The position numbers and the translations under genes were made by a program. From Brachyspira suanatina (GTDB taxonomy: Bacteria > Spirochaetota > Brachyspiria > Brachyspirales > Brachyspiraceae): a stretch of 64,000 nucleotides of DNA. The notes under the pieces were generated by a model, which was not told where the DNA came from, did not search any database, and saw only the letters and a list, made by a program, of their open reading frames with translations. Of the stretch, positions 8-16,544 are shown in pieces; position 1 is the stretch's first letter, and every line of letters begins with the position of its first letter. The stretch spans positions 109,743-173,742 of the forward strand of contig NZ_CVLB01000002.1 of assembly GCF_001049755.1 (NCBI RefSeq), in the 5' to 3' direction.

Positions 8-1483
8 TTAATCCCCTTCTATAACCCTAATCTCCTCATCAGTCAAATTGTATAATGAATACACAATCTTATCAATAGCCTTGTCCACCGCCTGAATACG
101 CGTGTTAAGCATCTCAATAGTGTTAGGGTTCTTCTCGGAGGAAAGTTTTTTGTTTAAATCAATGATGTTGTCAACGAGCTTAATTAAATTTTCTTCTGTA
201 TTTTTATCAATATCTGGAATAGGAAAATCATTTATATATTGAGGTTTAAACCTTGTTGTATTGCCCCTTAATATAGTACCTGTTTTTTTAACATAATAAG
301 TAAATAACTTACTATTAAAAATCCCCATATAAACATTGATGTTGTATATAGCCTTTTCATTAAATACAATACTGTAAATTGTAGTTGTATGATATAAATT
401 TTTATCATCAATTACAGCCTGCATTCTCATATTAATATCAGGAAAAGAAATTTTTTTATGCTCAAATTCATTTAAATTTTGAGGTCTGCTATATTGCCAC
501 CATGTATTTTTAAATTTTCCATGTTCTCTGCTTTCTAATACTTTTTTATTTTCTTTTAGATATTCCCAAGCCTTTGGAAAATTATCCATTATTTCTTTAG
601 AAGTATATAATGATAATGAACCATTTGATAATTTATAAGGAAATATAACACATCGAGTTGGTATTAATTCTGTATATCTTTTTAAATCTTTACCTAATAA
701 AAAGTGCTTTATAAATCCTCTCTCTATTTCTATTTCCCTATCTAATGACTTTGAATAAGTTTTTACAATTCCATTATTTTCTTCCACCCTTGTAAAACAT
801 AAATATCGTCTGCACTTGTAGCTATACCTTGAAATATTTTTTTTGTTATATCTTTTAAAACTATTTTATAATTTTTTAATTTATCTATTATAGACAAAGT
901 ATCATTATCATAAAAATTCCAATTATCTTTTGTTATTATACTAATAGGAAAAGTTTCAAAAGTAGATTCAAACAATTTTTCTTTTATATCTACATTTTCA
1001 TCAAATCTCAATAATTTAAAATCATTTTGTTCTTCATTAGATAAAAATAATAAACAAGTATATGTAGTAGCATTATTAAATATTTGATTCTCACCAAAAT
1101 ACACAACTTTTTTTAATGCCTTTCTATTAGATATTATTTCTCTTAAATTCTCTCCCATATCTACTTTAAAAAACTTATGAGATAAAATATATCCCATTTC
1201 ACCTGTAGACTTTAATAACTGAAAAGCTTTTTCAACAAAACATAAATAAATATCTATATTACCACTGTTTGCACTTTTATAAGTTTGTTTTAATGCATCT
1301 ACAGTTAATGGGCTTGATTCTGCCATTGTCTGAATTTTTACATAAGGAGGGTTTCCAATTACTACATCAAATCCCCCTGCTTTCATTATATCCCTAAACT
1401 TAGAATTCCAATCGAAACAGTTAATTTTATATAAAGTGTCATCGTCCAAATCGAGATGGCTCTCGTAAAAATCATTGCCTACT
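8..1483 (-). pseudogene. Frameshifted 3' cassette of a type IIG-like restriction-methylase
   Basis: This is a 3' half-copy of the enzyme at 11295-14153. It starts at the codons for GNDFYES, carries methylase motif IV (GNPPY) and a TaqI-like C-terminal specificity region, and ends RVIEGD. The N-terminal nuclease and SAM-binding motif I are absent. The reading frame breaks at about 787-789: the upstream frame (763-1497, GTG start) runs out after YVLQGWKKIMEL, while the downstream frame (8-787) resumes with NGIVKTYSKSLD. Comparison with the cassette at 6262 shows that one base is missing in a GGG run. The last ~130 codons are nearly identical to that cassette, while the middle (residues after PYKL) differs, as expected for exchangeable target-recognition segments. 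Its 5' end abuts a hairpin repeat. It is probably not expressed as an active enzyme and could act as a sequence donor (inference). Confidence 0.8.
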
Positions 1484-1973
1484 ACTATCTGTAGCACCTT
1501 CCCGCACGATAACGCTCACCCTTACAGCAAGTACAATGTACGCGACCGAAGGAAGTACTGTAAAGTATGCGGCTAATTACCCAACCATAAAAAATAAAAT
1601 TAACCAAAAAGCCAACCCAGAAATAATTTTTTTGAAAATTTACCTAACAATCAACACCTTGACCGAGCGAAACAAAAAATAAAAAGATATAAAATTTTAA
1701 TTTTTTACTTATATAGTACCCACTCGAACCCGCCCTTATAGTTAAACAGAATTTTTTTAAACAATAAGCCCAAAAAACTAACTTTTTTAGAAAAAACTAC
1801 GAGCTGTAGCACCGCCCCGCAGTATTCGCCATACGGGCTTCCCGCACGGTAATGCTCACACTTACAGCAAGTACAATGTACGTGCGGCTGATTACCCAAC
1901 ATTAAACAAAAATAAATTAATTGTAAAAACATAACCTATATGTTAAAATTAATAATAAAAATAAGGACTAAAA
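1484..1973 (+). repeat. Hairpin repeat blocks flanking the first methylase cassette
   Basis: Two copies of the island's dispersed repeat lie here in the plus orientation, near 1493-1790 and 1797-1920. Each contains CCGCACG, a ~40-60 base insert and a matching TGCGG arm followed by CTAATTACCCAAC or similar. AT-rich spacers with the phrase AACCCAGAAATAATTTTTTT and a C-rich stretch (CCCACTCGAACCCGCCC) follow. The open frame on the minus strand at 1705-1932 is repeat sequence read through and is not supported as a gene. The last ~40 bases hold the leader of the DUF4160 gene, with AAGGAC as its ribosome binding site. Confidence 0.7.
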
Positions 1974-2228
1974 ATGCCTGTTATATCAAGATTTTACGGT
2001 ATCATCATCAAAATGTATTTTCAGCAAAAAGAGAATAACCCTCCGCATTTTCATGCTATATATGGTGAGTATGTTGGAGTAATTGATATCAATGAATTAA
2101 AAATGATAGAAGGCGATTTACCTAATAAAGCATGTTCGCTTGTATTGGAATGGGCTAAAAATAATCAAGACGAACTTTTAAATATATGGAATACTCAAAA
2201 CTTTAAACAATTAGAACCTTTGGAGTAA
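1974..2228 (+). CDS. DUF4160 family protein
   Basis: This 84-residue protein has the DUF4160 signature: MPVISRFYGI at the N-terminus, then NPPHFHAIYGEY around residues 22-33, and a C-terminal helix with LVLEWAKNNQDELLNIW. Family members are small, of unproven biochemical role, and are often encoded next to a DUF2442 protein, as here (2-base gap). The pair resembles a toxin-antitoxin-like two-gene unit by size and layout, but that function is inference. AAGGAC sits about 8 bases before the ATG. It is one of only two genes on the plus strand in the island and is surrounded by repeat blocks, which suggests separate acquisition. Confidence 0.75.
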   Translation: MPVISRFYGIIIKMYFQQKENNPPHFHAIYGEYVGVIDINELKMIEGDLPNKACSLVLEWAKNNQDELLNIWNTQNFKQLEPLE

Positions 2229-2230
2229 TT

Positions 2231-2473
2231 ATGACTTTCCATAAAATTAAAAATGTTAAAGCTTTGGACAATCTCATTTTAGAAATAATATTTGAAAATG
2301 AAGAAATAAAATATTATGATATAAAAAAATTAATCCCTGAACATAAAGAGTTTGAAATTTTGAAAGATAAAACTTTATTTAATCTTGTAAAAGTAGATGT
2401 CGGCGGATACGGTATTTCTTGGAACGATGATTTGGATATATCATGCAACACTTTATACTACTCGCCTAGCTAA
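2231..2473 (+). CDS. DUF2442 family protein
   Basis: This 80-residue protein matches DUF2442: a short beta-rich domain with VKALDNLILEIIFENEEIKYYD near the start and VDVGGYGISWNDDLDISCNTLY near the end. It begins 2 bases after the DUF4160 stop and is surely cotranscribed with it. DUF2442 proteins are thought to be small binding or antitoxin-like proteins; no reaction is known. The final codons (YYSPS-stop) are already part of the dispersed repeat (CTCGCCTAGCTAA), so the native C-terminus may have been replaced by a few residues when the repeat inserted. Confidence 0.75.
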   Translation: MTFHKIKNVKALDNLILEIIFENEEIKYYDIKKLIPEHKEFEILKDKTLFNLVKVDVGGYGISWNDDLDISCNTLYYSPS

Positions 2474-3973
2474 CGCACTACTCGCCGTAGGGGCATTCCG
2501 TACGGTAACGCTCACCATTACAGCAAGTACAATGTAAGCGACCGAAGGAAGTACTGTAAAGTATGCGGCTAATTACCCAACCATAAAAAATAAAATTAAC
2601 CAAAAAGCTAACCCAGAAATATAAAAACGTATCCAGAAATAATTTTTTTTGAAATTTACCTTATTCCCCCACTGACCGAGCGAAACAAAAAATAAAAGGC
2701 TATAAAATTTTTAATTTTTACTTATATTATACCCGCCCGCCCACCCTATATAGTTAAACAAACATTTTTAACAAAACAAGCCTACAAATATAATTTTTTT
2801 AGAAAAAATTAGAAAAAGATTGTACTTTTTTCAATAAAAATTGTGAGCTTCTGGCAAGTTTACTTGACAGAACCCAAAAGCGAACAATTTTTATTTATAA
2901 TAAAACAAAAGAAGCAAAAATCATTTACATACTGTAGGATAATCCAAACATTCTGGCAATATACCAAAAACGCTAACGCGAATTTTATTAAATATACAAC
3001 GCAGGCTAAAGCCTTTTACTATGAACTACTCGCCTAGCTTACGCACTACTAGCCGTAGGGGCTTCCCGCACGGCAACGCTCACCATTACAGCAAGTACAA
3101 TGTACGTGCGGCTTATTACCCAACATCAAACAAAAACAAACTAACTAAAAAGCCAACCCAGAAATATAAAATCGAACCCGCAAACAGAAACTAACCCAGA
3201 AATATAAAACTAACCCACAAACTAAAACTAACTCAGAAATAATTTTTTTGAAATTTACCTAACAATCCCCCCTGACCGAGCGTAGCGAGGAAATACCCGG
3301 ACGAAGTCCACCGGAGGTGAGGGTACGCCCTTATTATTAAACAAACATTTTTAACAAAACAAGCCTACAAATATAATTTTTTTAGAAAAAATTAGAAAAA
3401 ATATTGTACTTTTTTCATAGGAAAAAAGTACCAAAAAACTACTTCTTTTGTGGCACAGGCGAAGCCCGCCTACGGCGAGAAGCAAAAAGCATTTACATCA
3501 TGTAGGATAATCCAATTTTTCTGGCAATATCCCAAAAAGCTAACGCGAATTTTTATTAAATATACAACGCAGGCTAAAGCCTTTTACTCTGAAATAATAA
3601 TCTACTTAAATATACGGCTAATTACCCAACATAAAACAAACTAACTAAAGAGCTAACCAAGAAATATAAAAACTAACCCACAAACTAAAACTAATCCAGA
3701 AATAATTTTTTTTGAAATTTACCTTATTACCCACCCAAACTCGCCCTTATAGTTAAACAAACATTTTTAACAAAATAAGCCCGAAAATATAAATTTTTTT
3801 CAAGAACTACTAAAAAAGTTGACTTTCCCAACCCCAACAAGCTAGCCATCTGAACCACTCGCCTAGCTAACGCACTACCTACGGTCGGGGGCATTCCGCA
3901 CCGTATATCTTAATATTAAGGCTAGTAAAATGTAGGTGCGGTTTATTATGCAATATTAAACAAAAATAAAAAA
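2474..3973 (+). repeat. 1.5-kb gene-free mosaic of dispersed repeats
   Basis: Three tandem-like mosaics occupy this stretch (about 2463-2800, 3025-3400, 3600-3970), all in the plus orientation. Each has parts of the same order: CTCGCCTAGCT(A/T)ACGCACTA, CCGCACGG hairpin, AACCCAGAAATA phrase, C-rich tract, and AGTTAAAC or TTAAAC followed by T-runs. A second repeated segment (about 2925-3025 and 3485-3590) carries AACGCAGGCTAAAGCCTTTTACT. Short plus-strand frames at 2843-3037 and 3450-3644 translate this segment and resemble each other only because the DNA is repeated. They lack convincing start sites and are not called genes. Confidence 0.7.
2732..2746 (-). other. G-quadruplex motif (minus strand)
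   Basis: The plus strand reads CCCGCCCGCCCACCC, so the minus strand has four GGG runs separated by single bases, the tightest form of a G-quadruplex motif. Such a run is very unlikely by chance in DNA this AT-rich. It lies inside a dispersed repeat block of the methylase island. Confidence 0.6.
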
Positions 3974-4771
3974 CTATATATTGTCTAACAATAATATAAA
4001 TTTGTTAAGGTCAAGTATTCGTGTATTATTAGAAGTATGAAAAAAACGAATATTATATCCATTATCTTTAACATAGCATAAATTAGATTTTAATGACAAG
4101 TTTTCATCATTAGTAACAAAATAATCACTAGACATTGAAAAACAGGAATGCATACCATCTATAAACATATTTCTATATTTTAATTTAGAATTTTTTTCAG
4201 ATAATTTATCTTCTACAATATCGATAAACAAATACATAGAAAGATATTTTTGAAATATATTAAAGTTTTTATTTTTATAAAAATTCTCTATTATTGTACT
4301 CATATATAATTGTTTTATATCATCATTATTTTTTAAAATGAACTTAATATTTTTTCTATCTTCGTTATATAGTTTTTTGTTTTCAATATATTTATTATGT
4401 TGTATTATAAAAGGATTTGACACAGAATCAATATAACCTAAATCCATCTGCTTAAACATATCATCAAAATTTTCTGCTTTTTTATACTTATCAGTTATTT
4501 TTATATTATGATCAATACAAAATCTTTCTTCTTGTTCAAAATAATATAAATAATTACTATCAACTATTTGACTCATAAATTCAAAATCTTCTTCTTTTTT
4601 ATTTGTTTTATCATTTTGCAAATCAAAAATGTGAGCCATAGAATATACATACAAAAATTTATTTTTTGAATTAATTATTTTATTAAAATTATTTGTATTA
4701 CCAGATTTATATTCATTTTTTAATATACTAAATATATTTTTATCAAAATAAACTATTTTTTTATTTTCCAT
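3974..4771 (-). CDS. PIN-like domain protein, second gene of a two-gene accessory operon
   Basis: This 265-residue protein starts with KIVYFDKNIFSIL, which places an Asp at the end of the first strand as in PIN nucleases. Near the C-terminus it has DGMHSCFSMSSDYFVTNDENL, matching the PIN pattern of an Asp-x2-His helix followed by DYFVTxD. The middle ~150 residues are helical and charged with no recognised domain. PIN-like folds usually cleave RNA with a metal bound by these acidic residues; activity here is inference. Its ATG lies inside the 3' end of the upstream TPR-DUF2971 gene (19-base overlap), with AAGGGTGA as ribosome binding site, so the two proteins are translationally coupled and probably act together. 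The whole unit sits directly behind a methylase cassette. Confidence 0.65.
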   Translation of the reverse strand: MENKKIVYFDKNIFSILKNEYKSGNTNNFNKIINSKNKFLYVYSMAHIFDLQNDKTNKKEEDFEFMSQIVDSNYLYYFEQEERFCIDHNIKITDKYKKAENFDDMFKQMDLGYIDSVSNPFIIQHNKYIENKKLYNEDRKNIKFILKNNDDIKQLYMSTIIENFYKNKNFNIFQKYLSMYLFIDIVEDKLSEKNSKLKYRNMFIDGMHSCFSMSSDYFVTNDENLSLKSNLCYVKDNGYNIRFFHTSNNTRILDLNKFILLLDNI

Positions 4772-6255
4772 TTATCACCCTTAATAATATTAATCTCTTT
4801 AGGTATCAGATTAAACAAATTATTTTTATCAGACTCCATTTTATAAAATTTAACATTATCATCTTTAACTAAACTTTTTATCAATTTAATATCATCATTG
4901 CTTGAATTCATTCCAAAATAAATAGCCTTAATTGGTAAATAAATATATTCCTCTTTAGTATCAGCAATAATCCTATATTCATTTTCATACTGCCAATTTT
5001 TATGTTTTATATAAAATAATGATATAAATTTATTTTCATATTCAATATCTTTATTGTTTAATATATAAGGATATACCTTATTAGTAATTATTTTATTAGT
5101 GTAAATAACTTTTTTTAAAATCAATTTATTAATTTTACTATTCAGTTTTTTTAAATAACTTATATCATATTCTATACATATACCTTTATGTTCATCAGCA
5201 TAATGACTCCACATAAGAAAATTATCATATTCTACAGCTAAAGAACATATTTTTATTCTATCTATATTTTTTATATTTTTAAAATCATATATATTTAATT
5301 TAATTGGTGGATCAATGGGGTCATTAAAATAATTATAATTACTTAATCTCAAATTTTTTAATTTATCATTATTATTAGATATTAATTTTAATGTACTAAT
5401 ATTTATACATCTATATTTATATAATATATTATTTTCCAATATATCAGATTTTATACTAAAATCTTTTTTTATTATTGTTTGAAATATTTTATAAAAATAT
5501 CGTTTCATATTAATATTTTTTGATAATATTAAATATAAAAAATAGAAAGTTTCTAATGTCCTATTATTATCACAATTTATACTCTTATTAAAATATTCAT
5601 AAGCTAACTCTAAATGATTAACAAATCCTTCAAATAAGGCTCTACTATTATAATGTACTGATTGTAAACCATAATGTGACTCCCTTAAATTCATAAATCT
5701 TATAATATCATTTAAAGCCTCATCGTATTCTCCCAATTCAAAAAAACTAATAGCTCTATTATAATAAGAATTATAATTATCATATTCTATTGATTTATTA
5801 TAATAATATATAGATTTCCTATATAACTTTTTTCTATGATATAAAAAACCAATATAATTATATAGAGTCCCTTTACCTACAATATGTTTTAGAAAATTAT
5901 TAGTATGCAATGATATAGCTTTTTCCAAATCTTTTAATGGCTGTTTAACTTTATTTTTATACAAAAGAATATGCCCTCTATAATATAAAGAAAAAACATA
6001 TTTATCATTTAATTTGATAGAATCATTAATATAACGAATCGCTTTTTTCTCATTATCTAATAAATAGTAAAAAACGCCTATATAACATTTTACTAAATAT
6101 TTACAGTCATTATCACATTTTTTTTCTTCATCAAGAAAATAGTTCAATCCATTTTGATAATTAGTATTTCTATCATTAATATCTAAGCCAATATCTTGAT
6201 AAAAATAATAAAATAAAAATTTATGATAATACTTATTAGCAAGTTTATCACTCAT
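4753..6255 (-). CDS. TPR-DUF2971 fusion protein
   Basis: The 500-residue product has two parts. Residues ~45-280 are helical repeats of TPR type (for example YYNKSIEYDNYNSYYNRAISFFELGEYDEAL). Residues ~285-490 match DUF2971: LRLSNYNYFNDPIDPP, then ICSLAVEYDNFLMWSHYADEHKGICIEYD, then KNWQYENEYRII. DUF2971 proteins are of unproven biochemistry and are recurrent in phage-defence neighbourhoods (general knowledge). The TPR part suggests sensing or binding of another protein. The ATG lies 6 bases after the stop of the methylase cassette at 6262, and GAGGGAT in the cassette's final codons is the only good ribosome binding site. The gene overlaps the PIN-like gene downstream. Codon use is extremely AT-rich, more so than the core genes. 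Confidence 0.7.
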   Translation of the reverse strand: MSDKLANKYYHKFLFYYFYQDIGLDINDRNTNYQNGLNYFLDEEKKCDNDCKYLVKCYIGVFYYLLDNEKKAIRYINDSIKLNDKYVFSLYYRGHILLYKNKVKQPLKDLEKAISLHTNNFLKHIVGKGTLYNYIGFLYHRKKLYRKSIYYYNKSIEYDNYNSYYNRAISFFELGEYDEALNDIIRFMNLRESHYGLQSVHYNSRALFEGFVNHLELAYEYFNKSINCDNNRTLETFYFLYLILSKNINMKRYFYKIFQTIIKKDFSIKSDILENNILYKYRCINISTLKLISNNNDKLKNLRLSNYNYFNDPIDPPIKLNIYDFKNIKNIDRIKICSLAVEYDNFLMWSHYADEHKGICIEYDISYLKKLNSKINKLILKKVIYTNKIITNKVYPYILNNKDIEYENKFISLFYIKHKNWQYENEYRIIADTKEEYIYLPIKAIYFGMNSSNDDIKLIKSLVKDDNVKFYKMESDKNNLFNLIPKEINIIKGDKWKIKK

Positions 6256-6261
6256 AATATT

Positions 6262-7752
6262 TTATCCCTCAATAATCCTAACTTCATCATCAGTTAAATT
6301 GTATAACGAATACACAATCTTATCAATAGCCTTGTCCACCGCCTGAATACGCGTGTTAAGCATTTCAATAGTGTTAGGGTTCTTCTCGGAGGAAAGTTTT
6401 TTGTTTAAATCAATGATGTTGTCAACGAGCTTAATTAAATTTTCTTCTGTATTTTTATCAATATCTGGAATAGGAAAATCATTTATATATTGAGGTTTAA
6501 ACCTTGTTGTATTACCCCTTAATATAGTACCTGTTTTTTTAACATAATAAGTAAATAACTTACTATTAAAAATCCCCATATAAACATTAATGTTATATAT
6601 AGCTTTTTCATTAAATACAATACTGTAAATTGTAGTTGTATGATATAAATTTTTATCATCAATTACAGCCTGCATTCTCATATTAATATCAGGAAAAGAA
6701 ATTTTTTTATATTCAAATTCATTAAGATTTTTAGGATATATATATGCATAAAATTTTTCATTTTTCATTTTACCATTTTCTCTATTTTCCAATGATTTTT
6801 TATTCTCTTTTAAATATTCCCAAGCTTTTGGAAACTGCTCTTTTATTTCTTTTTGTGAATATAATACTGCTGAACCAGATACTAATTTATATGGAAATAT
6901 AACCCATTTAGTATTTGTAGGTATACAATATCTTTTAATATCTTTACCAAATAAAAATGGTTTTATAAATTCTCTTTCTATCTCAATTTCTTTATCTAAT
7001 GACTTTGAATAAGTTTTTACAATTCCGTTAACTTCTTCTCCTCCATGTAAAACATAAACAATATCAGAACTAGTTTGAAGTCCAACAAAAATTTTACGAG
7101 ATATATCTTTTAATACTGTTTTATAATTTTTTAATTTTTCAATTATGGATAAAGTATTATTACTATAAAAATTCCAATTATCTTTTGTTATTATACTAAT
7201 AGGAAAAGTCTCAAAAGTAGCTTCAAATAACTTTTCTTTTATATCTACATTTTCATCAAATCTTAATAATTTAAAATTATCTTGTTCTTCATTAGATAAA
7301 AATAACAAACAGGTATATGTAGTAGCATTATTAAATATTTGATTCTCCCCAAAATACACAACTTTTTTTAATGCTTTTCTATTAGATATTATTTCTCTTA
7401 AATTCTCTCCCATATCTACTTTAAAAAACTTATGAGGTAAAATATATCCCATTTCACCTGTAGACTTTAATAATTGGAGAGCTTTTTCAACAAAACATAA
7501 ATAAATATCTATATTACCGCTGCTTGCACTTTTATAATTTTGTTTCAATGTTTCAACAGATAACGGACTTGATTCCATCATAGTTTGAATTTTTACATAA
7601 GGAGGGTTTCCAATTACCACATCAAATCCCCTTGCTTTCATTATATCCCTAAACTTAGAATTCCAATCGAAACAGTTAATTTTATATAAAGTGTCATCGT
7701 CCAAATCGAGATGGCTCTCGTAAAAATCATTGCCTATTAAACTATTACCGCA
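6262..7752 (-). pseudogene. Silent 3' cassette of a type IIG-like restriction-methylase
   Basis: This is an intact-frame 3' half-copy of the enzyme at 11295-14153, from NSLIGNDFYES through methylase motif IV (GNPPYVKIQ) and a specificity region to VRIIEG-stop. It lacks the nuclease and motif I (DPACGSG). The junction with a dispersed repeat is sharp at TGCGG (7748-7752), a pentamer shared by repeat and gene. The frame continues into the repeat and could start at TTG 7806, giving 514 residues beginning MAFDKGRRYRAGSPYDEYCG, but no proper start site is visible. The C-terminal ~130 codons nearly match the cassette at 8-1483, while the central target-recognition part differs. It could be a silent donor for specificity switching or a decayed duplicate. 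The TPR-DUF2971 gene follows 6 bases later. Confidence 0.75.
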
Positions 7753-7859
7753 GTATTCGTCATACGGGCTTCCCGCACGGTATCGCCTCCCCTTATCAAA
7801 CGCCAACTATACGTGCGGCTAATTACCCAACATCAAACAAAAACTAAAACAATAAAATT
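7753..7859 (+). repeat. Hairpin repeat at the 5' edge of the second cassette
   Basis: A short copy of the dispersed repeat, with GCTTCCCGCACGGTA, an insert and ACGTGCGGCTAATTACCCAAC. It has the same orientation and the same junction side as the repeat beside the first cassette. No gene is visible in it. Confidence 0.65.
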
Positions 7860-8036
7860 TCATGATCTTTTTAATGGTATATTTTTTTCTTCAAAATAAA
7901 GTGATATGGCATTTTTTATTTCTTTCAAGGCTTCTTCTTCTGTTGCTCCAAAAGCACTTATATTATCTAATTCTTCTGATAAAGCTATATAGCCATCATC
8001 TTCTTCACTATAAAAAATTTTAATGCTATATTTCAT
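7860..8036 (-). CDS. hicB: HicB-like antitoxin, short
   Basis: The 58-residue product begins MKYSIKIFYSEEDDGYIALS and continues with ELDNISAFGATEEEALKEI. This is the HicB partial RNase H-like fold: a strand, a D/E-rich turn with DGY, then G-x-T-x-EEAL and a helix. HicB proteins bind and neutralise HicA and often repress their own operon. This one lacks the C-terminal DNA-binding helix-turn-helix or ribbon domain of longer HicBs. The ATG is 1 base after the hicA stop, and TTGGAGGAATGAT in the end of hicA supplies a strong ribosome binding site. The order toxin-antitoxin is typical of hicAB. Confidence 0.8.
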   Translation of the reverse strand: MKYSIKIFYSEEDDGYIALSEELDNISAFGATEEEALKEIKNAISLYFEEKNIPLKRS

Positions 8037-8037
8037 A

Positions 8038-8280
8038 TCATTCCTCCAAATTATATTTATTAACTAGATATAAAAATTGTTTAACTTGATAAGGTTTTAC
8101 CTCTCCATTAACATTTTGAATATTAATTAACTCAGAAATACCAATTCTTGAATATATTCTATGACTTCCTCTTTGTCTTTTACACACAAAACCAAAAGAT
8201 TCTATAATATTACAAAAATAAGAATATTTAATATTTTTATTATTATTTGTAAGTTTATTAATAATTTCTTTTTTATCCAT
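8038..8280 (-). CDS. hicA: HicA-like mRNA interferase toxin
   Basis: This 80-residue protein has the HicA double-stranded-RNA-binding-like fold: a helix (KEIINKL), then FCNIIESFGFVCKRQRGSHRIYSR, where GSH at residues 38-40 includes the catalytic His of the family. The C-terminal KPYQVKQFLYLVNKYNL helix also fits. HicA cleaves mRNA on ribosomes until bound by HicB. The gene sits directly upstream of hicB with a 1-base gap. Repeat blocks border the pair on both sides. A plus-strand frame over the same stretch (8161-8349) has no family features and is ignored. Confidence 0.8.
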   Translation of the reverse strand: MDKKEIINKLTNNNKNIKYSYFCNIIESFGFVCKRQRGSHRIYSRIGISELINIQNVNGEVKPYQVKQFLYLVNKYNLEE

Positions 8281-8319
8281 AATTTAATTATAAAATTATT
8301 TAATATAAAATCAACTGTT

Positions 8320-8891
8320 TTCCTTGTTTCCGCCTACTCGCCTAGCTAACGCACTACTCGCCGTAGGGGCTTTCCGCACGGTACTGCAACCCCCTTACAG
8401 ACAGTCAACTGTACGCGACCGAAGGAAGTACCCGAAGGGTATGCGGTTTATTATCCAACATAAAACAACTACGATCCGTAGCACCTTCCCGCACGGCAAC
8501 GCTCACCCTTACAGCAAGTACAATGTAAGTGCGGCTGATTACCCAACATCAAACAAAAACAAACTAACTAAAAAGCCAACCCAGAAATATAAAATCGAAC
8601 CCACAAACAGAAACTAACCCAGAAATAATTTTTTGAAAATTTACCTTATAACCCACCCAAACCCGCCCTTTAAAGTTAAACAGAATGTTTTTAAACAATA
8701 AGCCCGAAAATCTAATTTTTTTAAAAGACTACTAAAAAAAGTTGACTTTCCCCACCCCAACAAGATAGCCATTTGAACCACTCGCCTAGCTAATGCACTC
8801 CCTACGGTCGGGGGCTTCCCGCACTGTATATCTTAATATTAAGGCTAGTACAATATATGTGCGGTTTATTATCCAATATTAAACAAAAAAA
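8320..8891 (+). repeat. Gene-free dispersed-repeat mosaic
   Basis: About 570 bases hold at least three hairpin modules in plus orientation (CCGCACGG with inserts near 8376, 8491 and 8817) plus the AACCCAGAAATAA phrase, a C-rich tract and TTAAAC/T-run modules. The plus-strand frame at 8324-8617 is translated repeat DNA and is not a gene. Confidence 0.7.
8652..8668 (-). other. G-quadruplex motif (minus strand)
   Basis: The minus strand reads GGGCGGGTTTGGGTGGG: four GGG runs with loops of 1, 3 and 1 bases. Its layout is very close to the guanine motif that starts pilin gene conversion in Neisseria. It lies in a repeat block between hicAB and the unknown 329-residue gene. Confidence 0.6.
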
Positions 8892-9881
8892 TTAATCTGC
8901 AAATGGTATATATGGTGTTTCTACAGCTTTTATATGTTCCAACACTTCTTCTACAAAATATTCTGTAACTCGTTTATCATTTTTATAAAATTCTTCTATC
9001 CTTAAAATAACTCTTAATTCATCATCTTTAGAAAAATATTCTTTATTATATTTAACATTATTTAGAAATTTTTTATCTTCTATTATGACAGATATCTTTG
9101 GCATATCAACATTATAAAGTGTCCATTTATTATTTTCATTAAAAGAAAGTTTATCTATACATAAAACTACTTCTTTTCTATATTTACTATTTTTGCTATT
9201 TAATATAATATCAGGAGCTTTATAAAAATCTATATTAGATTTATCTGCAACATCTTGAATTTCACCATTACTATATTCTATTTTTAATTCATCTATTTTA
9301 TTATTTCCTTTTATAGGAGATGTTATTTTTTCAACATTTTTCCTAACCGCACCATTATAACATAATTTTACCATCTTTTGAGATTTAGTTTTAGTTGTGA
9401 TGGTATTTCCATCTTTAATTTCTGTAGTATCTGTATTTTCTACATATTCATATTTTATATAGCTATCATCTATATTTTTAACATATATAGCTCCATCTTC
9501 TTCTATTTCTATAGATGAATCATTATTTTCTGAAATCTTTCCTTTAGTTATTTTAATAAAATTAAGTATATTTCTTAATATATTAATAATCTCTATTGCT
9601 GTTAAAGTAGCTGTAGTAGGGCTACTATTCAATAATAGTTCTATATTTTTTAAAACTTCAACAATAAATTCTATCCCAAAACTACCTTTTTCAAAATTAG
9701 CTTTAACTTTTAATTTAATTGTTGTAAAATCAAAATTGAGTTCACTATTAACTTCTAAAAATAAATCATTTAAACTTTCTATAATTAAAGCTAACTCCAT
9801 TGCATCCATTTCATGATTTTTTAAATCCTCACCATCATATATAAATTTTAAAGAACTAGTAGTAATATCAATATTTTCCAT
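8892..9881 (-). CDS. Conserved-looking protein of unknown function (329 aa)
   Basis: I do not recognise a named family with confidence. The N-terminal ~110 residues (FIYDGEDLKNHEMDAMELALIIESLNDLF, then LKVKANFEKGSFGIEFIVEV) resemble an alpha/beta domain seen in island proteins of ~300 residues. A hydrophobic stretch follows (about residues 85-115, LLLNSSPTTATLTAIEIINILRNIL), then a beta-rich C-terminal half with many charged residues. It starts at an ATG with TTGGAGGAATA in front. It is flanked by repeats downstream and an AT-rich 137-base gap upstream, and is not coupled to a methylase tail. The hydrophobic part may touch a membrane or be a buried helix pair. Confidence 0.6.
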   Translation of the reverse strand: MENIDITTSSLKFIYDGEDLKNHEMDAMELALIIESLNDLFLEVNSELNFDFTTIKLKVKANFEKGSFGIEFIVEVLKNIELLLNSSPTTATLTAIEIINILRNILNFIKITKGKISENNDSSIEIEEDGAIYVKNIDDSYIKYEYVENTDTTEIKDGNTITTKTKSQKMVKLCYNGAVRKNVEKITSPIKGNNKIDELKIEYSNGEIQDVADKSNIDFYKAPDIILNSKNSKYRKEVVLCIDKLSFNENNKWTLYNVDMPKISVIIEDKKFLNNVKYNKEYFSKDDELRVILRIEEFYKNDKRVTEYFVEEVLEHIKAVETPYIPFAD

Positions 9882-10018
9882 TATTCCTCCAATAATATAT
9901 ATTTGTAATTTAATAATTATTATATAGAATAAATCGACAGAATTAAATAAAAATTTATCTTTAAATTATCGGTATTTTTGTCAATATAATTTAATAAAAA
10001 ATAATAATATTAATAAAA

Positions 10019-10849
10019 CTATTTTTTATTAATATCATTATACAAATCTAACAATTTATAAAATGAATCATCAGGTAAAGATCCTACAATTTGCATAATA
10101 TCACTAGAATATTTTATATCAATATCAGATATAAAATATAATTTAGATTTTATAAACTTACAAGTATCTTGATGATTAAATAAAGTAATATTTATACCTC
10201 CTTTATTTAAAGAACTTTCAAATTTAATACCATCAAATCCAAGATTTTTTAATAATTCTGCAATATATTGAGTTGGTATATAATCTATATCATTTCCATA
10301 ATTTATATTAGAAAAACATTTATTTAAAGAAATAAATTCTGTTTTAATATTTTCAATATTCTCAAATGTAAATTTTGTAATATCAAATAACGTTAAATCA
10401 CATAAAGTTTTTATTTCAGCTACACTTACAAAATTACGCACCATGGGTCTAACTTCTTTTATACTTGTATTTATATCTTCGGATGTGTATAAATAACTAA
10501 TTTTTTCAGGATTTGCTCTTCCTGCTTTTGCTATTTCTGGACTTGGTGCCATAGAATTTTTTTCATCATAACCAGTTATTTCTTTTTCATCATTAATTTT
10601 TTGTTCGTCTATATCTCCATCAAATATCCTACTACGATATAAGTAACTATCTTTTTTTAATATATATTTATGATTTAATCCCTCTTTTTGTACAGTATCT
10701 ATTATTTTATGTTTTGGAAAAAATCTGTTATTAGAAATAATTTCTTTTTTGAAATCTTCAACATCAATGATTATTTTATATTTAAAATATAACAAAACAA
10801 TTGCTACAGCCCATACTGGATTAATATCTTTGTTATTATCTTCTTCCAT
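10019..10849 (-). CDS. RES-domain protein, probable NAD-degrading toxin
   Basis: The 276-residue protein contains a full RES domain from about residue 68. It has YRSRI (Arg72), then MAPSPEIAKAGRANPEKISYLYTSEDINTSIKEVRP (Arg111, Tyr119, Glu132), and GFDGIKFESSLNKGGINITLF (Ser212/213). RES is named for its conserved Arg, Glu and Ser; characterised members phosphorolyse or hydrolyse NAD+ and stop growth. The N-terminal 60 residues form a helical extension of unknown role. No RES-linked Xre/MbcA-type antitoxin gene is visible next to it. The ATG lies 8 bases after a relic of the methylase C-terminus (10858-10949), whose GAAGGAGA is its ribosome binding site. A defensive growth-arrest role is inference from context. 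Confidence 0.75.
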   Translation of the reverse strand: MEEDNNKDINPVWAVAIVLLYFKYKIIIDVEDFKKEIISNNRFFPKHKIIDTVQKEGLNHKYILKKDSYLYRSRIFDGDIDEQKINDEKEITGYDEKNSMAPSPEIAKAGRANPEKISYLYTSEDINTSIKEVRPMVRNFVSVAEIKTLCDLTLFDITKFTFENIENIKTEFISLNKCFSNINYGNDIDYIPTQYIAELLKNLGFDGIKFESSLNKGGINITLFNHQDTCKFIKSKLYFISDIDIKYSSDIMQIVGSLPDDSFYKLLDLYNDINKK

Positions 10850-10857
10850 TTTTTTAT

Positions 10858-10949
10858 TTAATCTCCTTCTATAATCTTTCTTTCTTCCTCTGATATATTA
10901 TAAATGGAATAAACAGTTTTATCAATAAAAGAATTAATATATAAATAAT
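10858..10949 (-). pseudogene. Relic of a methylase C-terminus
   Basis: The minus strand encodes INSFIDKTVYSIYNISEEE and then RKIIEGD-stop, which aligns with QIDALVYKLYNFIDEEVRIIEGE of the intact enzyme and IDKIVYSLYNLTDEE of the cassettes. Nothing of the rest of the enzyme remains: the HNH-like gene ends at 10950. The relic's GAAGGAGA followed by the stop serves as ribosome binding site for the RES gene. Confidence 0.7.
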
Positions 10950-11228
10950 TTACTGATTAAGTCTAAGTAAATCTATTCGTTCTACATTCATAGGTGATTG
11001 ATTATAAATATAATTGCATTCTTTACACAAAGGTACTATATATACCATATCATGAGAATAATTAGGATAAACATGAGCTCCAACCTCAGCATCGTTATTA
11101 CATGCTAAATTAGAGCACTTTTGAAATTTTCTTCCTTTTTTATCTTCCCAATATTCTTTCCAAGTATTATAACCACTTGGTGGATTTTCATTTGAAGTTC
11201 CTATTTTATTATATACTGTAATCATCAT
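10950..11228 (-). CDS. Small HNH-like zinc protein
   Basis: This 92-residue protein has Cys38-x4-Cys43 (KCSNLACNN), then GAHVYPNY with His52, then YIVPLCKECN with Cys68-x2-Cys71. This is the zinc scaffold and betabeta-alpha layout of HNH endonucleases; the first His of the classical active site could be His52, but the final catalytic His is not obvious. It might be a small nuclease or only a zinc-binding protein. It starts at one of two adjacent ATGs behind AAAGGAG, 66 bases after the stop of the intact restriction-methylase, and probably shares its transcript. Confidence 0.6.
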   Translation of the reverse strand: MMITVYNKIGTSNENPPSGYNTWKEYWEDKKGRKFQKCSNLACNNDAEVGAHVYPNYSHDMVYIVPLCKECNYIYNQSPMNVERIDLLRLNQ

Positions 11229-11294
11229 AACTCCTTTGTAATTTATATAAATTATAATAATGTAATAATTTTATTTAAACCTCTTATAGTTCCT

Positions 11295-14153
11295 TTATTC
11301 CCCTTCTATAATTCTCACTTCCTCATCGATAAAATTATACAACTTGTACACCAACGCATCAATCTGCTTGTCAACAGCATTGATTTGCCTGTTAATCATA
11401 GTAACAGCATTAGGATTTTTTTCAACAGCTAACTTCTTGTTTAACGCAATGATACTGTCAACTAAAGTAACCATTTTGTCATGCATTTCCTTGTCTTGTG
11501 TATTGGACATATCTAACAATGGTACAGGTAAATTATATAATTCATTAGTTAATATATGATTATTTGAACTTGTTAACTTATATCTCCAATTTAATAATTT
11601 AGAATTTAGTAATCCTAAAAAATATTTAATATCATAATCGCTATTATTGACAACATAACCACATGTATTTGCAACATAACTATTATTTTCTAATAATTGA
11701 AAATTTAATCTTCTATCTTTTTGAGTGTTAACTACTTGTTGATATACAAGCCTTACATTATTTCTATCATTAAGTTTTTTAGAAGAAGAAATACTTTTTA
11801 CAATTTTATCATCTATAAAACTATCCTTTTTTGACTCCAAAAATAAATATCTTTGTACTGCATCACCTCTAATTAAATTAAAAATATTTTCTGATTCCTT
11901 ACTACTTCTTATAGCATCTGAAAATTTAGTTAAATGAATTTCCCCTTCTATAAAAGATACAAAATTATCTTTCTTAAAATTATCTAATTTACATAATTTA
12001 GATAATAAAGAAATTTCACCACTACTATTTATTAAAGGTATTTTTTCTAAATAAATAACTATATCTTTAGGTATTAAAACAGAATACCTACTTTTTAAAT
12101 CATCAGAATTCATCAAACCTTTAGATAACATAATTTCTTTTTTATTATTTGATAATATATATATACTAACATCTTGAGTAACATTTTTAAAAACTTTTGC
12201 TTTTTCTGGAAAATGTTTTATGTTTAAATAAGAAAAAGTATCTAGTATATAATTTCTTAAATTTATATTAGATTTATCTGTTAAAATACCTGTTGGCATA
12301 ATTACACCAATTAATCCATTTGTATTAATTAGCTTTGTCATTTTTTCAGTAAATACTTTATATAAATTTATTTCTCCTTGTATAGTGTTATATTTAATTT
12401 TTATATAATTATTAGTCTGTTTTAAAGTATTATAATCTTCTTTATTTTCTTTTCCTAATGTTATTTCATACGGCGGATTGCCTATCACCACATCGAAACC
12501 GCCACCTTTAAAAATATTTTTAAATTCGTCCTCCCAATCAAAACAATTTATTTTATATTGCGTCTCCTCGTCAAAATCAAGCACCGACTGGCTCTCGTAA
12601 AAATCATTGCCTATTAAACTATTACCGCATTTGATATTGTCCTCCAATGACGGTAAAGCTCGCTCATTAAATAAATCCTGATTGTTCTGTATTGACGCTG
12701 GACTCTCCCCCTCCAAACATTTCATAAGTAATGATAATTTCGTTACCTCTACCGCATTGCTGTCTATGTCAACTCCAAATATATTGTTGCGTAATATCTG
12801 CTTCTTTATCCAAATTGTTAAATCCCCATTCTCTTTTATTACATCTTCTTTTGAACCCTTAAACTTCGCCCTGTCCTTTATCTTGTTGTAATATTCAATA
12901 TGATAATTAAGTAAATATTTATACGCCCCAAGTAAAAAACTTCCGCTGCCGCAAGCCGGATCCAATATTTTTATATTCGCTATCTCCTCAGGCTTCTTCC
13001 CCTTTATAGCCTCCCCAACCGTATTCGCTACTATATAATCAACTATATACTCAGGTGTATAATAAACCCCTCCTGCCTTACGCACCTCTGGTTTTAATTC
13101 TATCTTCGCACTATGATTCTTCCCTATAGTGATAGTCTTACCCAAAAACTGCTCATAAGCATTCCCTATTATCTCAACCGATATCACAGAAAACTCATAA
13201 GGACTCAAAGGATAATAAAGCTCATTAATAATCTCTTTTATTACTTTATTATCAATCTCAATACTGCTGCTAATACTGTCTTTAGAAAAATCAAACAGCC
13301 CCGAATTATACCTGCCGTCAGCCTTCTCAAAAATTTTTAAAAGATTACCATAAAAACTCTCGCCCTTATTCTCGCAAGTCCTTTTTAAATCCCCATACTC
13401 CTCAATGCCTCTGTCTTCAGCCGCCCTCAAAAATATAATCCTGTCAATAATCTGCTGAACTGCATAATTCAAATCACGTACAGATAAATTTTTATTAAGC
13501 TTCGCAATATTAGATGCAAGCTTAGTCCTTAAATTATCAAGTGAATTAAGAAAATCTATATCAACACTTTCAGTACCTTTTTTGTTTGAAGTACCTGCAA
13601 TATATTTTTCAAGCGAACCCTGTTCAATCCTCTCTTTATTAAGTATCTCATAAAGAAAATCAAATCTATTAAGATAATCTTCAAAATGAATATACTCAAT
13701 CCTAGCAGTAGAAGCCTTATCATTAATATTTGGCTTTCTAGTGCAGTCATAAACGGCAAGCTCTTCAAAATCAGTGAGGAAACTTATACCGAGCTTAGCA
13801 CTCCAGCCATACCTCCTAAGCTGAAAAGCAGGCAAACTGTCCTCTTTAAGATTAACACCCGGCTTTTTCGCCTCCACAAAGAAAACCCTATTCCCCCCAA
13901 TACGAAATGCATAATCAGGAGCTTTAGTTTCCTTCCCCACTTTCACCTTATCCTCATGAATTACATCACGATAAGTTTGTGATTTACCCGCCCTGTTAGC
14001 TACATCCCAACCAAATGCCTCAAAGAACGGATCCAAAAAATCCCTTCTAGTCTCCGTTTCATTATAATTTTTATTTGTATACTGATCCTTGTTATTCCTA
14101 AACTTAATAACTAACTCTTCAACTTTTTTATAAACTTCTTCTTTACTATACAT
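11295..14153 (-). CDS. Full-length type IIG-like restriction-modification enzyme
   Basis: A 952-residue fused restriction-methylase. The N-terminus carries a PD-(D/E)xK-type nuclease (PDYAFRIGGNRVFFVEAKKPG). An N6-adenine methylase domain follows, with motif I ILDPACGSGSFLLGAY near residue ~400 and motif IV GNPPYEI near ~560. The C-terminal third is a TaqI-like target-recognition region ending DEEVRIIEGE. One chain of this type methylates its site and cuts unmethylated DNA. I place the start at ATG 14151-14153 (MYSKEEVYKK), since GGGGGAC precedes it; an in-frame ATG at 14198 would add 15 residues without a good binding site. It is the only complete copy in the window. The two half-copies and two relics elsewhere match its 3' portion only. 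A heptamer repeat and a hairpin repeat lie in its upstream region. Confidence 0.85.
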   Translation of the reverse strand: MYSKEEVYKKVEELVIKFRNNKDQYTNKNYNETETRRDFLDPFFEAFGWDVANRAGKSQTYRDVIHEDKVKVGKETKAPDYAFRIGGNRVFFVEAKKPGVNLKEDSLPAFQLRRYGWSAKLGISFLTDFEELAVYDCTRKPNINDKASTARIEYIHFEDYLNRFDFLYEILNKERIEQGSLEKYIAGTSNKKGTESVDIDFLNSLDNLRTKLASNIAKLNKNLSVRDLNYAVQQIIDRIIFLRAAEDRGIEEYGDLKRTCENKGESFYGNLLKIFEKADGRYNSGLFDFSKDSISSSIEIDNKVIKEIINELYYPLSPYEFSVISVEIIGNAYEQFLGKTITIGKNHSAKIELKPEVRKAGGVYYTPEYIVDYIVANTVGEAIKGKKPEEIANIKILDPACGSGSFLLGAYKYLLNYHIEYYNKIKDRAKFKGSKEDVIKENGDLTIWIKKQILRNNIFGVDIDSNAVEVTKLSLLMKCLEGESPASIQNNQDLFNERALPSLEDNIKCGNSLIGNDFYESQSVLDFDEETQYKINCFDWEDEFKNIFKGGGFDVVIGNPPYEITLGKENKEDYNTLKQTNNYIKIKYNTIQGEINLYKVFTEKMTKLINTNGLIGVIMPTGILTDKSNINLRNYILDTFSYLNIKHFPEKAKVFKNVTQDVSIYILSNNKKEIMLSKGLMNSDDLKSRYSVLIPKDIVIYLEKIPLINSSGEISLLSKLCKLDNFKKDNFVSFIEGEIHLTKFSDAIRSSKESENIFNLIRGDAVQRYLFLESKKDSFIDDKIVKSISSSKKLNDRNNVRLVYQQVVNTQKDRRLNFQLLENNSYVANTCGYVVNNSDYDIKYFLGLLNSKLLNWRYKLTSSNNHILTNELYNLPVPLLDMSNTQDKEMHDKMVTLVDSIIALNKKLAVEKNPNAVTMINRQINAVDKQIDALVYKLYNFIDEEVRIIEGE

Positions 14154-14351
14154 AATGTCCCCCATTACTTTTAATAATTTTATTTTTGTAACATTCAAAT
14201 ATAAAAAATAAACTTTAAACGCAATACTCTCATTAAACTATAAAATAAATATACACTTTTATATAGTATACAAAATTTTACTTAAATATTCAATGAAAGA
14301 TACCATTTTTTATAGTACAACCTTTAAGAAATATAATTGATAGAAAACTGA

Positions 14352-14407
14352 TTGACTATTGACTGTTGACTGTTGACTGTTGACTGTTGACTGTTGACTG
14401 TTGACTT
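14352..14407 (+). repeat. Heptanucleotide tandem repeat, 8 units of TTGACTG
   Basis: Six perfect TTGACTG units (14359-14400) are preceded by TTGACTA and followed by TTGACTT, with no spacers. It lies about 200 bases upstream of the restriction-methylase start. Unit-number change by slippage could alter promoter spacing, a known form of phase variation. Whether the promoter lies nearby is not shown by the sequence. Confidence 0.85.
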
Positions 14408-14499
14408 TCATAATATAAAATACCCCAATTATAACTTTATACTACAATACACCCAAACCGCACATTTTGCAACTAAATATAAGTAGAAAAAACAACCCA

Positions 14500-14655
14500 A
14501 ACATCAAACAACTACGAGCTGTAGCACCACCCCGCACGGTAACGCTTTACCTTATCAAATGTCCACTATATGTGCGGCTGAATATCCAACCATAAACAAT
14601 AAAATTAACTAAAAAGCTAACCCAGAAATAATTTTTTGAAAATTTATTTAGTACA
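14500..14655 (+). repeat. Hairpin repeat upstream of the restriction-methylase
   Basis: A copy of the dispersed repeat in plus orientation: GAGCTGTAGCACC, CCGCACGGTAACGC, an insert, TGTGCGGCTGAATATCCAAC and AACCCAGAAATAATTTTTTG. It ends just before the stop of the ASCH gene. Apart from this repeat and the heptamer array, the 14199-14671 interval shows no gene. Confidence 0.7.
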
Positions 14656-14671
14656 TTAATAAATTCATTAA

Positions 14672-15040
14672 TCATAGATATACAAAAGATTGAGGAGCAT
14701 AAAAAATATTAAAATCTTCTAATTTTTTAGGTTTACGATATTTTTTTATTTTACCTATTTTTATAGCATATGCTATTTCTTTATTTTCAAGATATTTATA
14801 AAAAAAATCTACAGAAACACCAGACTCATATTTTATTATGTTCCATACATTATCTAAATCATCAGATATTATATCTTCTATTTCAAATTCACCTACTACT
14901 TTAGAAATAGGAGATGAAGAATATATTATAATTTTTTTTATATTCTTCCTTTTAAAAATAGATTTTCTAATTTCATATTTTTTACTACCATTGAATATTT
15001 TTTCAACATATTCAGGTTTAATAGACAATAAAACTTTCAT
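14672..15040 (-). CDS. ASCH/PUA-like domain protein
   Basis: The 122-residue protein begins MKVLLSIKPEYVEKIFNGSKKYEIRK, the classic ASCH opening (strand, helix with I-F-x-G-x-K-x-x-E-x-R), followed by IIIYSSSPISKVVGEFEIEDI. ASCH domains have a PUA-like beta barrel and bind RNA or modified nucleotides; some family members cleave acylated cytidine. Its ATG overlaps the 3' end of the upstream PIN-GNAT-PUA gene by 23 bases, so the two are translationally coupled and probably act in one process. The specific substrate is unknown. Confidence 0.75.
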   Translation of the reverse strand: MKVLLSIKPEYVEKIFNGSKKYEIRKSIFKRKNIKKIIIYSSSPISKVVGEFEIEDIISDDLDNVWNIIKYESGVSVDFFYKYLENKEIAYAIKIGKIKKYRKPKKLEDFNIFYAPQSFVYL

Positions 15041-16544
15041 TTACTTTACACTCTCTTAATATTAATAAGAATTGTTCTTTTGTTATTTTTGTTAGACCTC
15101 TAATTCCATTATCAGCATCACTTATAATTCCTAGCTGCAGTAATCTACCTCTATTCATTCTATTACCAATTTTAAATGAATATACATATAAAAAATTAAT
15201 TAAAAATGGTTTAGTACCTTTACCATTCCAAAAATTAGATAATTCTTTATCTGTAAAAATACTTCTTTTCCTAGAATTTATTATAAATTCTTTTTCATTT
15301 TTTATCTTATCAATTTTTTCTTCAACTATTCCTATAGTAGTTATCACAGATGAATATTTTGCTGGTTTACCCTCTTCTTTAGTTCTATAAAATATTATAA
15401 TATCTCCCTTTTTTATATTTTTATTTAATGAACGAGATACATAAACTTTACTTATTGCATTCCTATGTGGTAAATTATCTTTAAAATCTTTTGCAGATTC
15501 TGTTTTTAAATAAGAATCAGGTAATAAATCTGTATGATAATCTGGATATATTGGTACTAAAAAGATATTTGTATTTATTGAAAAAAATGGATAAGTATGT
15601 TTTGGTTCTTCTATATTAAACATTTTTGAAAAATCCCTGACATAAACTAATTCTCCATTCTCCCCTTTTTTTCCCCATTTAATAAAACCATATTCTTCAA
15701 ATAAATTAATTAGTCTATTTTGTCCTTCTCTTTTATCAAAAATTGTAACATATATTTCATCAACTTTATTAGCTATTGCATTATCAAATATTATTTTTAT
15801 AAATCTCTCACCTAATTTGACTCCGTTATATTCTACTTTAAAAGTACCTATTTTTAGTCTTTTTTTAGGAGAAAATGCAGGAATTATATCAGTATAGTTT
15901 TCATCTTTATCTTCAACTTTTAAATATAAAAAAGATAATAATTTTTTATCTTTGTAAGTAACATAAGCTATTTCATTAGATTTTTTATTAAACCATTTAT
16001 CAAACTCGACATAATCTTCTTTTAAAGAATCAAAGAATTTATCTTCTAAATCTATATTTCCAAAATATTCTTTTTCTACAGATAAAACTTTATAATCAAT
16101 GAGTTCAGGATTTTCTGAAATAACTTTTTCTAGAAAAGAGTCTATTGTAAATACTTTATTATCTATATTTACTAATTTAGCTTTTTGATGTATTTTTTTA
16201 TCTTCTGTAATAAATATATCAACTCTATCATTTAAAAGTTCATTTAATAATAAAGTATCATTTTTATCATTTTCTGTTTTATCAAATTTTTCATATATCT
16301 CAAGTAGTTTTTTATTTAATGGAGCTTGAGTCATAAGTACTGTATAATTTTTGGATTTTATATTCATAACATTTACAGTATCAGAATTTGAGTTTTTATT
16401 TAATTCTTCAAGATTAATTTTATGTATACATTTTTCATATTTAGTCCTTTCTAGCCATTTAAATAGACTACCTATTTCTCTATTGATTATTTTATTACTA
16501 CTTTCTCTATGAATAATAATATTTGTATCTAAAAGTGCTTTCAT
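15018..16544 (-). CDS. PIN-GNAT-PUA-like three-domain protein
   Basis: The 508-residue chain contains three recognisable parts. Residues 1-~145 are a PIN nuclease domain (MKALLDTNIIIHRES with Asp6; NDTLLLNELLNDRVDIFITEDKKIHQKA, with a late acidic cluster). Residues ~165-315 look like a GNAT acetyltransferase (IGTFKVEYNGVKLGERFIKIIFDNAI, then LINLFEEYGFIKWG). Residues ~330-508 contain an EVE/PUA-like region (KGDIIIFYRTKEEGKPAKYSSVITTIGIVEE). The combination suggests cleavage and acetylation of RNA or aminoacyl-RNA guided by PUA-like binding, but no activity is known to me. It overlaps the ASCH gene downstream and follows the DUF2513 gene by 91 bases. The ribosome binding site is weak (TTGGAT). 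Confidence 0.7.
   Translation of the reverse strand: MKALLDTNIIIHRESSNKIINREIGSLFKWLERTKYEKCIHKINLEELNKNSNSDTVNVMNIKSKNYTVLMTQAPLNKKLLEIYEKFDKTENDKNDTLLLNELLNDRVDIFITEDKKIHQKAKLVNIDNKVFTIDSFLEKVISENPELIDYKVLSVEKEYFGNIDLEDKFFDSLKEDYVEFDKWFNKKSNEIAYVTYKDKKLLSFLYLKVEDKDENYTDIIPAFSPKKRLKIGTFKVEYNGVKLGERFIKIIFDNAIANKVDEIYVTIFDKREGQNRLINLFEEYGFIKWGKKGENGELVYVRDFSKMFNIEEPKHTYPFFSINTNIFLVPIYPDYHTDLLPDSYLKTESAKDFKDNLPHRNAISKVYVSRSLNKNIKKGDIIIFYRTKEEGKPAKYSSVITTIGIVEEKIDKIKNEKEFIINSRKRSIFTDKELSNFWNGKGTKPFLINFLYVYSFKIGNRMNRGRLLQLGIISDADNGIRGLTKITKEQFLLILRECKVNESFIVY

What the first reader, a model, noticed from the sequence alone, without database searches (positions are those of the whole stretch)
3974..6255. 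TPR-DUF2971 plus PIN-like operon as a candidate defence system
Two overlapping genes pair a helical-repeat/DUF2971 protein with a PIN-like putative nuclease directly behind a methylase cassette. The layout of sensor plus effector in a defence island is suggestive. I know of no named system with this pair.
Basis: partly seen in the sequence, partly recalled or inferred. Interest (0 to 1): 0.65.

Follow-up and report, generated by a model that had tools for sequence, protein, structure and literature searches.

The report
Toxin-like gene with swapped-in neighbour
Two overlapping genes in a Brachyspira bacterium look like a paired phage-defence unit, but only the first belongs to a widespread defence-linked family, probably an enzyme that attaches ADP-ribose; the second seems to have been spliced on by recombination and is found with a different partner in a related species.

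Summary
The two ORFs are real and overlap by 19 nt: a 500-aa TPR-DUF2971 protein (4753-6255, minus) and a 265-aa PIN-like orphan (3974-4771, minus). The "methylase cassette" in front is a 5'-truncated type IIG fragment that lacks the nuclease domain and SAM motif.

The pair does not recur. The PIN-like family was found at four places in 393 spirochaete genomes and beside DUF2971 only here. In G016 it follows a RES gene; in G000 a 95%-identical RES gene is followed by something else. The 31 nt before the PIN start resemble the type IIG gene's 3' tail and are shared with G016, so the PIN gene looks like a tail module exchanged at a recurring stop/start junction in a repeat-rich hotspot.

DUF2971 itself is an already catalogued defence candidate (PADLOC PDC-S31) seen beside R-M genes. 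A confident model (pLDDT 86) gave ADP-ribosyltransferases (DarT, KptA) as all 16 top structural matches (best Z 7.0), and two Aquimarina operons read macro domain, DUF2971, KptA. I therefore predict an ART-like effector behind TPR repeats. Profile comparison gave no sequence support, and the PIN fold could not be modelled. Defence function is untested.

The parts
4753..6255 (-). TPR-DUF2971 protein, 500 aa; predicted effector
   Evidence: Pfam TPR_2 5e-11 and DUF2971 3.5e-14; PADLOC PDC-S31 1.8e-37; PHROG 1762 1.5e-30
5668..5982 (-). best-scoring part of the TPR region (about aa 92-196)
   Evidence: Pfam TPR_12, TPR_2, TPR_1 stretches
4969..5214 (-). DUF2971 core (aa 348-429)
   Evidence: Pfam PF11185 match; the model of aa 246-500 has pLDDT 86.4, pTM 0.85
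4978..4986 (-). invariant ExE (E424-N-E426) ahead of the strand EYRII; candidate ART catalytic glutamates
   Evidence: invariant in 62 aligned DUF2971 sequences; assignment as catalytic is inference
4766..4801 (-). junction: last codons of DUF2971 gene plus start of PIN gene, resembling the 3' tail of type IIG genes followed by ATGGAA; about 30/36 to the G016 IIG-RES junction, best unrelated match in the window 24/36
3974..4771 (-). PIN-like protein, 265 aa, small orphan family
   Evidence: ORF; four homologues with conserved acids; no database family
4106..4159 (-). C-terminal PIN-like motif D205..H208..D216-YFVT-N-D222
   Evidence: invariant in the four-sequence alignment
6262..7806 (-). 5'-truncated type IIG (Eco57I-like) fragment, 514 aa: NPPY motif and TaqI_C specificity domain, no nuclease domain or SAM motif I; probable silent or remnant cassette
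   Evidence: Pfam Eco57I 9.1e-36 from profile position 38 and TaqI_C 3.1e-14; compared with full-length 11295-14198
7749..7857 (.). copy of the ~109-nt hotspot repeat at the 5' side of the cassette
   Evidence: the repeat finder family D1
3872..3980 (.). copy of the ~109-nt hotspot repeat at the 3' side of the cassette
   Evidence: the repeat finder family D1

Best explanation
The unit of function is most likely the TPR-DUF2971 protein alone: a standalone defence or toxin-like effector in which TPR repeats sense or bind a trigger and control a C-terminal DUF2971 domain with an ADP-ribosyltransferase-like fold (DarT/KptA-like), which would use NAD+ to modify a nucleic acid, protein or metabolite and so stop growth of an infected cell. 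The PIN-like gene behind it is an interchangeable passenger, joined on by recombination at a stop/start junction that copies the 3' tail of the neighbouring type IIG genes; that tail carries a ribosome-binding GGGTGA/GGGGA followed by stop and ATGG, so any gene joined there is translationally coupled. Shown: the ORFs, domains, lack of recurrence, partner switching of PIN, shared junction sequence. Inferred: ART activity, TPR as sensor, defence function, recombination as the mechanism, and any nuclease activity of the PIN-like protein.
For: Domains and PDC-S31. DUF2971 is usually a lone gene: single chromosomal TPR-DUF2971 genes in other Brachyspira, mostly lone genes in 134 further loci, 48 of 296 phylum genomes. 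PIN partner differs: RES in G016, solo in G000 C1, solo in a prophage-like region of G004. The RES gene of G016 is 95% identical in protein to one in G000; DNA identity of 93% ends exactly at the RES stop codon, after which G016 has PIN and G000 has another gene; G016 then aligns with the window from 31 nt before the PIN start. Junction sequences: the closest DUF2971 relative (G008) ends NLFNLIAEKI* without the EINIIKGD tail. Fold: rows 1-16 of the structural comparison are all ADP-ribosyltransferases from four families (DarT, KptA/Tpt1, TreX, CteC), best Z 7.0, rmsd 4.2, 146 residues. Macro-DUF2971-KptA operons in two Aquimarina. Invariant ExE.
Against: Foldseek gave no significant PDB match and the structural Z of 7 lies in the range that unrelated models can reach by the tool's own note. 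Profile-profile comparison of DUF2971 with DarT, RES or KptA alignments was not significant. The Aquimarina operons come from one genus. The first ART motif (His in DarT-like HYT) is Lys in the window copy. The two hotspot copies of PIN both follow an ART-type gene (DUF2971, RES), so a functional link is not excluded. No functional data of any kind.
Confidence: 0.5

Rival explanations
1. A true two-component system: an ART-type effector (DUF2971 here, RES in G016) with the PIN-like protein as a dedicated partner (second effector, or antidote that cleaves a modified RNA).
For: Overlapping ORFs in one operon; both hotspot copies of the PIN gene lie directly behind an ART-superfamily gene; RES belongs to the ART superfamily (PMC9503650).
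Against: Only two cases. RES genes in the same genus have at least five other downstream neighbours (S42/LAPAL family, 463-, 424-, 273-, 325-aa genes). DUF2971 is normally alone. PIN also stands alone. The overlap arises from a one-base difference at the inherited stop codon.
Confidence: 0.15
2. Degrading cargo: the hotspot is a graveyard of recombining R-M fragments, and the DUF2971-PIN pair is a chance leftover without present function.
For: The upstream type IIG gene is truncated, a second copy is frameshifted (8-787 with 763-1497), the upstream RES copy carries an in-frame stop, and a DUF2971 remnant lies at a similar site in G010.
Against: Both ORFs are intact and the DUF2971 copy keeps every residue that is invariant in 62 relatives. 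PIN keeps its acidic set.
Confidence: 0.2
3. DUF2971 is not an ART but another enzyme or a non-enzymatic TPR-linked defence protein; the ART-like matches reflect a common alpha/beta arrangement.
For: Z about 7, no Foldseek hit, no profile match.
Against: The top 16 rows are without exception ART superfamily members of several families, and DUF2971 has macro-domain and KptA neighbours.
Confidence: 0.15

Closest known systems
PADLOC PDC-S31 (DUF2971, Pfam PF11185), phage-defence candidate single gene
   Same: The window protein matches four PDC-S31 models (best 1.8e-37) and Pfam DUF2971
   Different: Here the domain follows TPR repeats (common in Brachyspira) and a PIN-like gene is attached. No paper in the searched library describes the function of DUF2971
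DarT (DarTG toxin-antitoxin, DNA ADP-ribosyltransferase)
   Same: Best structural matches of the DUF2971 model: 7yk3 Z 7.0, 7omy Z 6.9; macro-domain neighbour in two Aquimarina loci
   Different: No profile similarity, no DarG next to the window gene, TPR fusion; target unknown
KptA/Tpt1 RNA 2'-phosphotransferase
   Same: ART fold, Z about 5.5 over 90 residues; operon neighbour in Aquimarina
   Different: Different family; partial alignment only
CmdTAC (mRNA ADP-ribosyltransferase anti-phage system, PMC11618068)
   Same: Shows that a phage-triggered ART can be a defence effector, the mode of action proposed here
   Different: Three-gene toxin-antitoxin-chaperone system; no TPR fusion, no PIN gene
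RES-Xre toxin-antitoxin modules
   Same: RES is an ART-superfamily NAD+ consumer and is the partner of the PIN-like gene in G016
   Different: No Xre/DUF2384 antitoxin seen next to these genes in the neighbourhoods listed; RES is not in the DUF2971-PIN pair

Membership tests
DUF2971 / PDC-S31 | score above the curated Pfam cut-off | tested here: met
   54.3 bits against 22; PDC-S31 1.8e-37
DUF2971 / PDC-S31 | family-invariant residues present | tested here: met
   FNDP, LMWSHYAxxHxG, KxxxWxYExExR all present
DUF2971 / PDC-S31 | anti-phage activity | not testable with these tools
   needs phage challenge
ADP-ribosyltransferase superfamily | ART fold | tested here: inconclusive
   top 16 structural rows are all ART (Z 7.0 to 4.5), but Z below 8 and no significant Foldseek match
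ADP-ribosyltransferase superfamily | sequence-profile relation to a known ART family | tested here: not met
   hhalign with DarT, RES and KptA alignments not significant (probability under 1%); the KptA alignment had two sequences
ADP-ribosyltransferase superfamily | catalytic Glu at the start of a core strand | tested here: inconclusive
   invariant ExE just ahead of a predicted strand; pocket geometry not inspected
PIN domain | match to a PIN family model | tested here: not met
   no Pfam or NCBIfam PIN model; hhalign with PF01850 proteins aligned only the first motif, not significant
PIN domain | four conserved acidic residues in PIN-like motifs | tested here: inconclusive
   D10, D50, D205, D216, D222 invariant in only four sequences
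PIN domain | PIN fold | tested here: inconclusive
   model unusable, pLDDT 37
conserved two-gene DUF2971-PIN system | recurrent adjacency in independent genomes | tested here: not met
   no second pair
type IIG restriction-modification enzyme (gene 6262-7806) | nuclease domain and SAM motif I present | tested here: not met
   fragment starts after both

The most novel reading that the evidence does not exclude
A new two-component immune module in which an ART-type effector (DUF2971 or RES, interchangeable) works with a dedicated PIN-like nuclease, spread as a cassette that plugs into the 3' tail of type IIG genes at a recombination hotspot.
Probability: 0.1. Interest if true: 0.75.

Novelty: new variant of a known kind. 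Interest (0 to 1): 0.42.

Why it matters
If DUF2971 is an ADP-ribosyltransferase-like domain, a widespread family without assigned function, already on the list of phage-defence candidates, gets a testable biochemistry (NAD+, ExE mutants). The hotspot shows how genes can be added behind an R-M gene through a shared stop/start junction, a caution against reading overlapping neighbours in defence islands as functional pairs.

Tried and rejected
Pair recurrence by PIN profile in 393 phylum genomes, by tblastn in phages and plasmids, by pattern scans of GTDB contigs and IMG/VR: nothing further; the pattern scans are insensitive for so small a family. PIN search in another phylum was not possible. 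The second partial TPR copy at G000:C2:109621-109736 was rejected as a real duplication: it is bounded by N at an assembly join. A DUF2971 link to Hsp90-like and tRNA-splicing-endonuclease chains in Foldseek rejected (E above 0.4, poor rmsd). AlphaFold of PIN without an alignment failed. An integron reading of the repeats was considered but not tested. Enrichment of DUF2971 near defence genes was not quantified for lack of a background set. No DarG, Xre antitoxin or named defence system with this gene pair was found.

Full report
Observation. The window lies in a 3.26-Mb genome (G000, window = C2:109743-173742). Its closest relatives include a genome whose contig length (1,084,995) equals that of a GTDB record titled Brachyspira hampsonii 30446, so the genus is taken to be Brachyspira. 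Pfam finds TPR repeats and DUF2971 in the 500-aa protein; PADLOC calls it PDC-S31. The 265-aa downstream protein has no family match. Its PIN label rests on an acidic pattern that is invariant in four homologues.

The 'methylase cassette'. The gene 6 nt upstream is a 514-aa fragment of a type IIG enzyme. The full-length gene in the same window (11295-14198) has an HSDR_N nuclease domain, the DPACGSGSF motif, NPPY and a TaqI_C domain; the fragment starts at CGNSLIGNDFYES and keeps only the last two. A second fragment (8-1497) is frameshifted. Copies of a ~109-nt repeat flank these units, and in this genome the repeat is almost confined to C2:106.6-124.4 kb. This is a recombination hotspot, and the upstream gene is a remnant or a silent specificity cassette rather than an active methylase (inference).

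Does the pair recur? PIN homologues in 41 relatives: G016 and a paralogue in G000 (a weak match in G003 is not a homologue). A profile in 393 phylum genomes adds one in G004, in a prophage-like region. None is beside DUF2971: G016 has RES upstream, the other two stand alone. DUF2971 is common (48 of 296 phylum genomes), and in Brachyspira it is mostly a lone TPR-DUF2971 gene between housekeeping genes. The nearest relative of the window protein (G008, 53%) has an unrelated 212-aa gene behind it. Among 134 DUF2971 loci from GTDB and IMG/VR no PIN relative lies within the stretches fetched.

How the pair arose. In G016 the order is IIG fragment, RES, PIN. The RES protein is 95% identical to one in G000 just upstream of the window. 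Their DNA is 93% identical until the RES stop codon and then diverges: G016 continues with PIN, G000 with another gene. From 31 nt before the PIN start, G016 matches the window's DUF2971-PIN junction. The junctions read GAGATTAATATTATTAAGGGTGATAAATGGAAAAT (window DUF2971-PIN), GAAATAAATATTATTGATGGGGAGTAAATGGAAAAT (G016 RES-PIN) and GAGATTAAGATTATTGAGGGTGAGTAATGGAAGAT (G016 IIG-RES). The window junction has about 30 of 36 bases in common with the IIG-RES junction, against at most 24 of 36 for any unrelated place in the window. The closest DUF2971 gene lacks this tail. The reading that fits best is that the PIN gene carries a copy of the IIG 3' tail with its ribosome-binding site and stop/start, and was exchanged between RES and DUF2971 genes through it. 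The 19-nt overlap follows from one missing base at the inherited stop codon. Other RES genes of the genus have different tail genes, as expected of modular exchange. The direction of transfer is not known.

What DUF2971 may do. An alignment of 62 DUF2971 domains gave a model with pLDDT 86.4 and pTM 0.85. Foldseek found no significant PDB match. VIA-align, applied to Foldseek's candidates, put ADP-ribosyltransferases in rows 1-16: M. tuberculosis DarT (Z 7.0, rmsd 4.2, 146 residues), Thermus DarT (Z 6.9), KptA/Tpt1 (Z 5.5), DarT1 (Z 5.2), TreX, CteC. A Z of 7 is not decisive by itself; the agreement of several ART families is what counts. In two Aquimarina loci DUF2971 lies between a macro-domain gene and a KptA gene, both tied to ADP-ribose chemistry, though from one genus. 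An ExE pair is invariant. Against it, hhalign with DarT, RES and KptA alignments was not significant. I put the ART reading at about 0.7, and the whole explanation, with TPR control and defence function, at 0.5.

Defence link. DUF2971 neighbours include type III Mod and Res (L122, L137, L155), type IIG, PD-Lambda-4_A and AbiH genes, and the family occurs in tectivirus-like Vibrio phage elements and on plasmids. This agrees with its PADLOC listing. No enrichment test was made.

Verdict. The interpretation as a new pair fails its own recurrence test. What remains is a known defence-candidate family with a new, moderately supported ART prediction, and a clear case of a neighbour acquired by cassette exchange.

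Noticed in passing
window 1478-14616 (nine copies): A ~109-nt intergenic repeat frames small gene cassettes (DUF4160-DUF2442 pair, HicA-like, type IIG fragments, RES plus S42/LAPAL) and is nearly confined to this hotspot in the genome; its ends resemble inverted repeats. A mobile-cassette role was not tested.
   Followed up: partly
window 8-1497, 6262-7806; L045 5116-6476, 8448-9680, 12442-13953: Repeated 3' fragments of type IIG genes start at GNDFYES or GGFDVVIGNPPY and end at the IIEGD tail, so they could act as silent target-recognition cassettes for the full-length gene.
   Followed up: partly
L124 4296-6433 and L133 4267-6370: Macro domain, DUF2971 and KptA genes in one operon in two Aquimarina; a possible DarTG-like toxin-antitoxin arrangement for DUF2971.
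   Followed up: partly
window 14672-16544: A 508-aa protein that begins like a PIN domain (MKALLDTNIIIH) with further domains, beside a 122-aa ASCH-like protein, at the edge of the hotspot.
   Followed up: no
L059 14626-14743 (G000:C2:109621-109738, just outside the window): Single Ns bound a 112-bp copy of the TPR gene start between two copies of the IIG tail: a probable assembly join that should be re-sequenced.
   Followed up: yes
L104 7929-8618: A DUF2971 gene in Vibrio Vinavirales-like phage elements (PE003) next to toxin-antitoxin genes.
   Followed up: no
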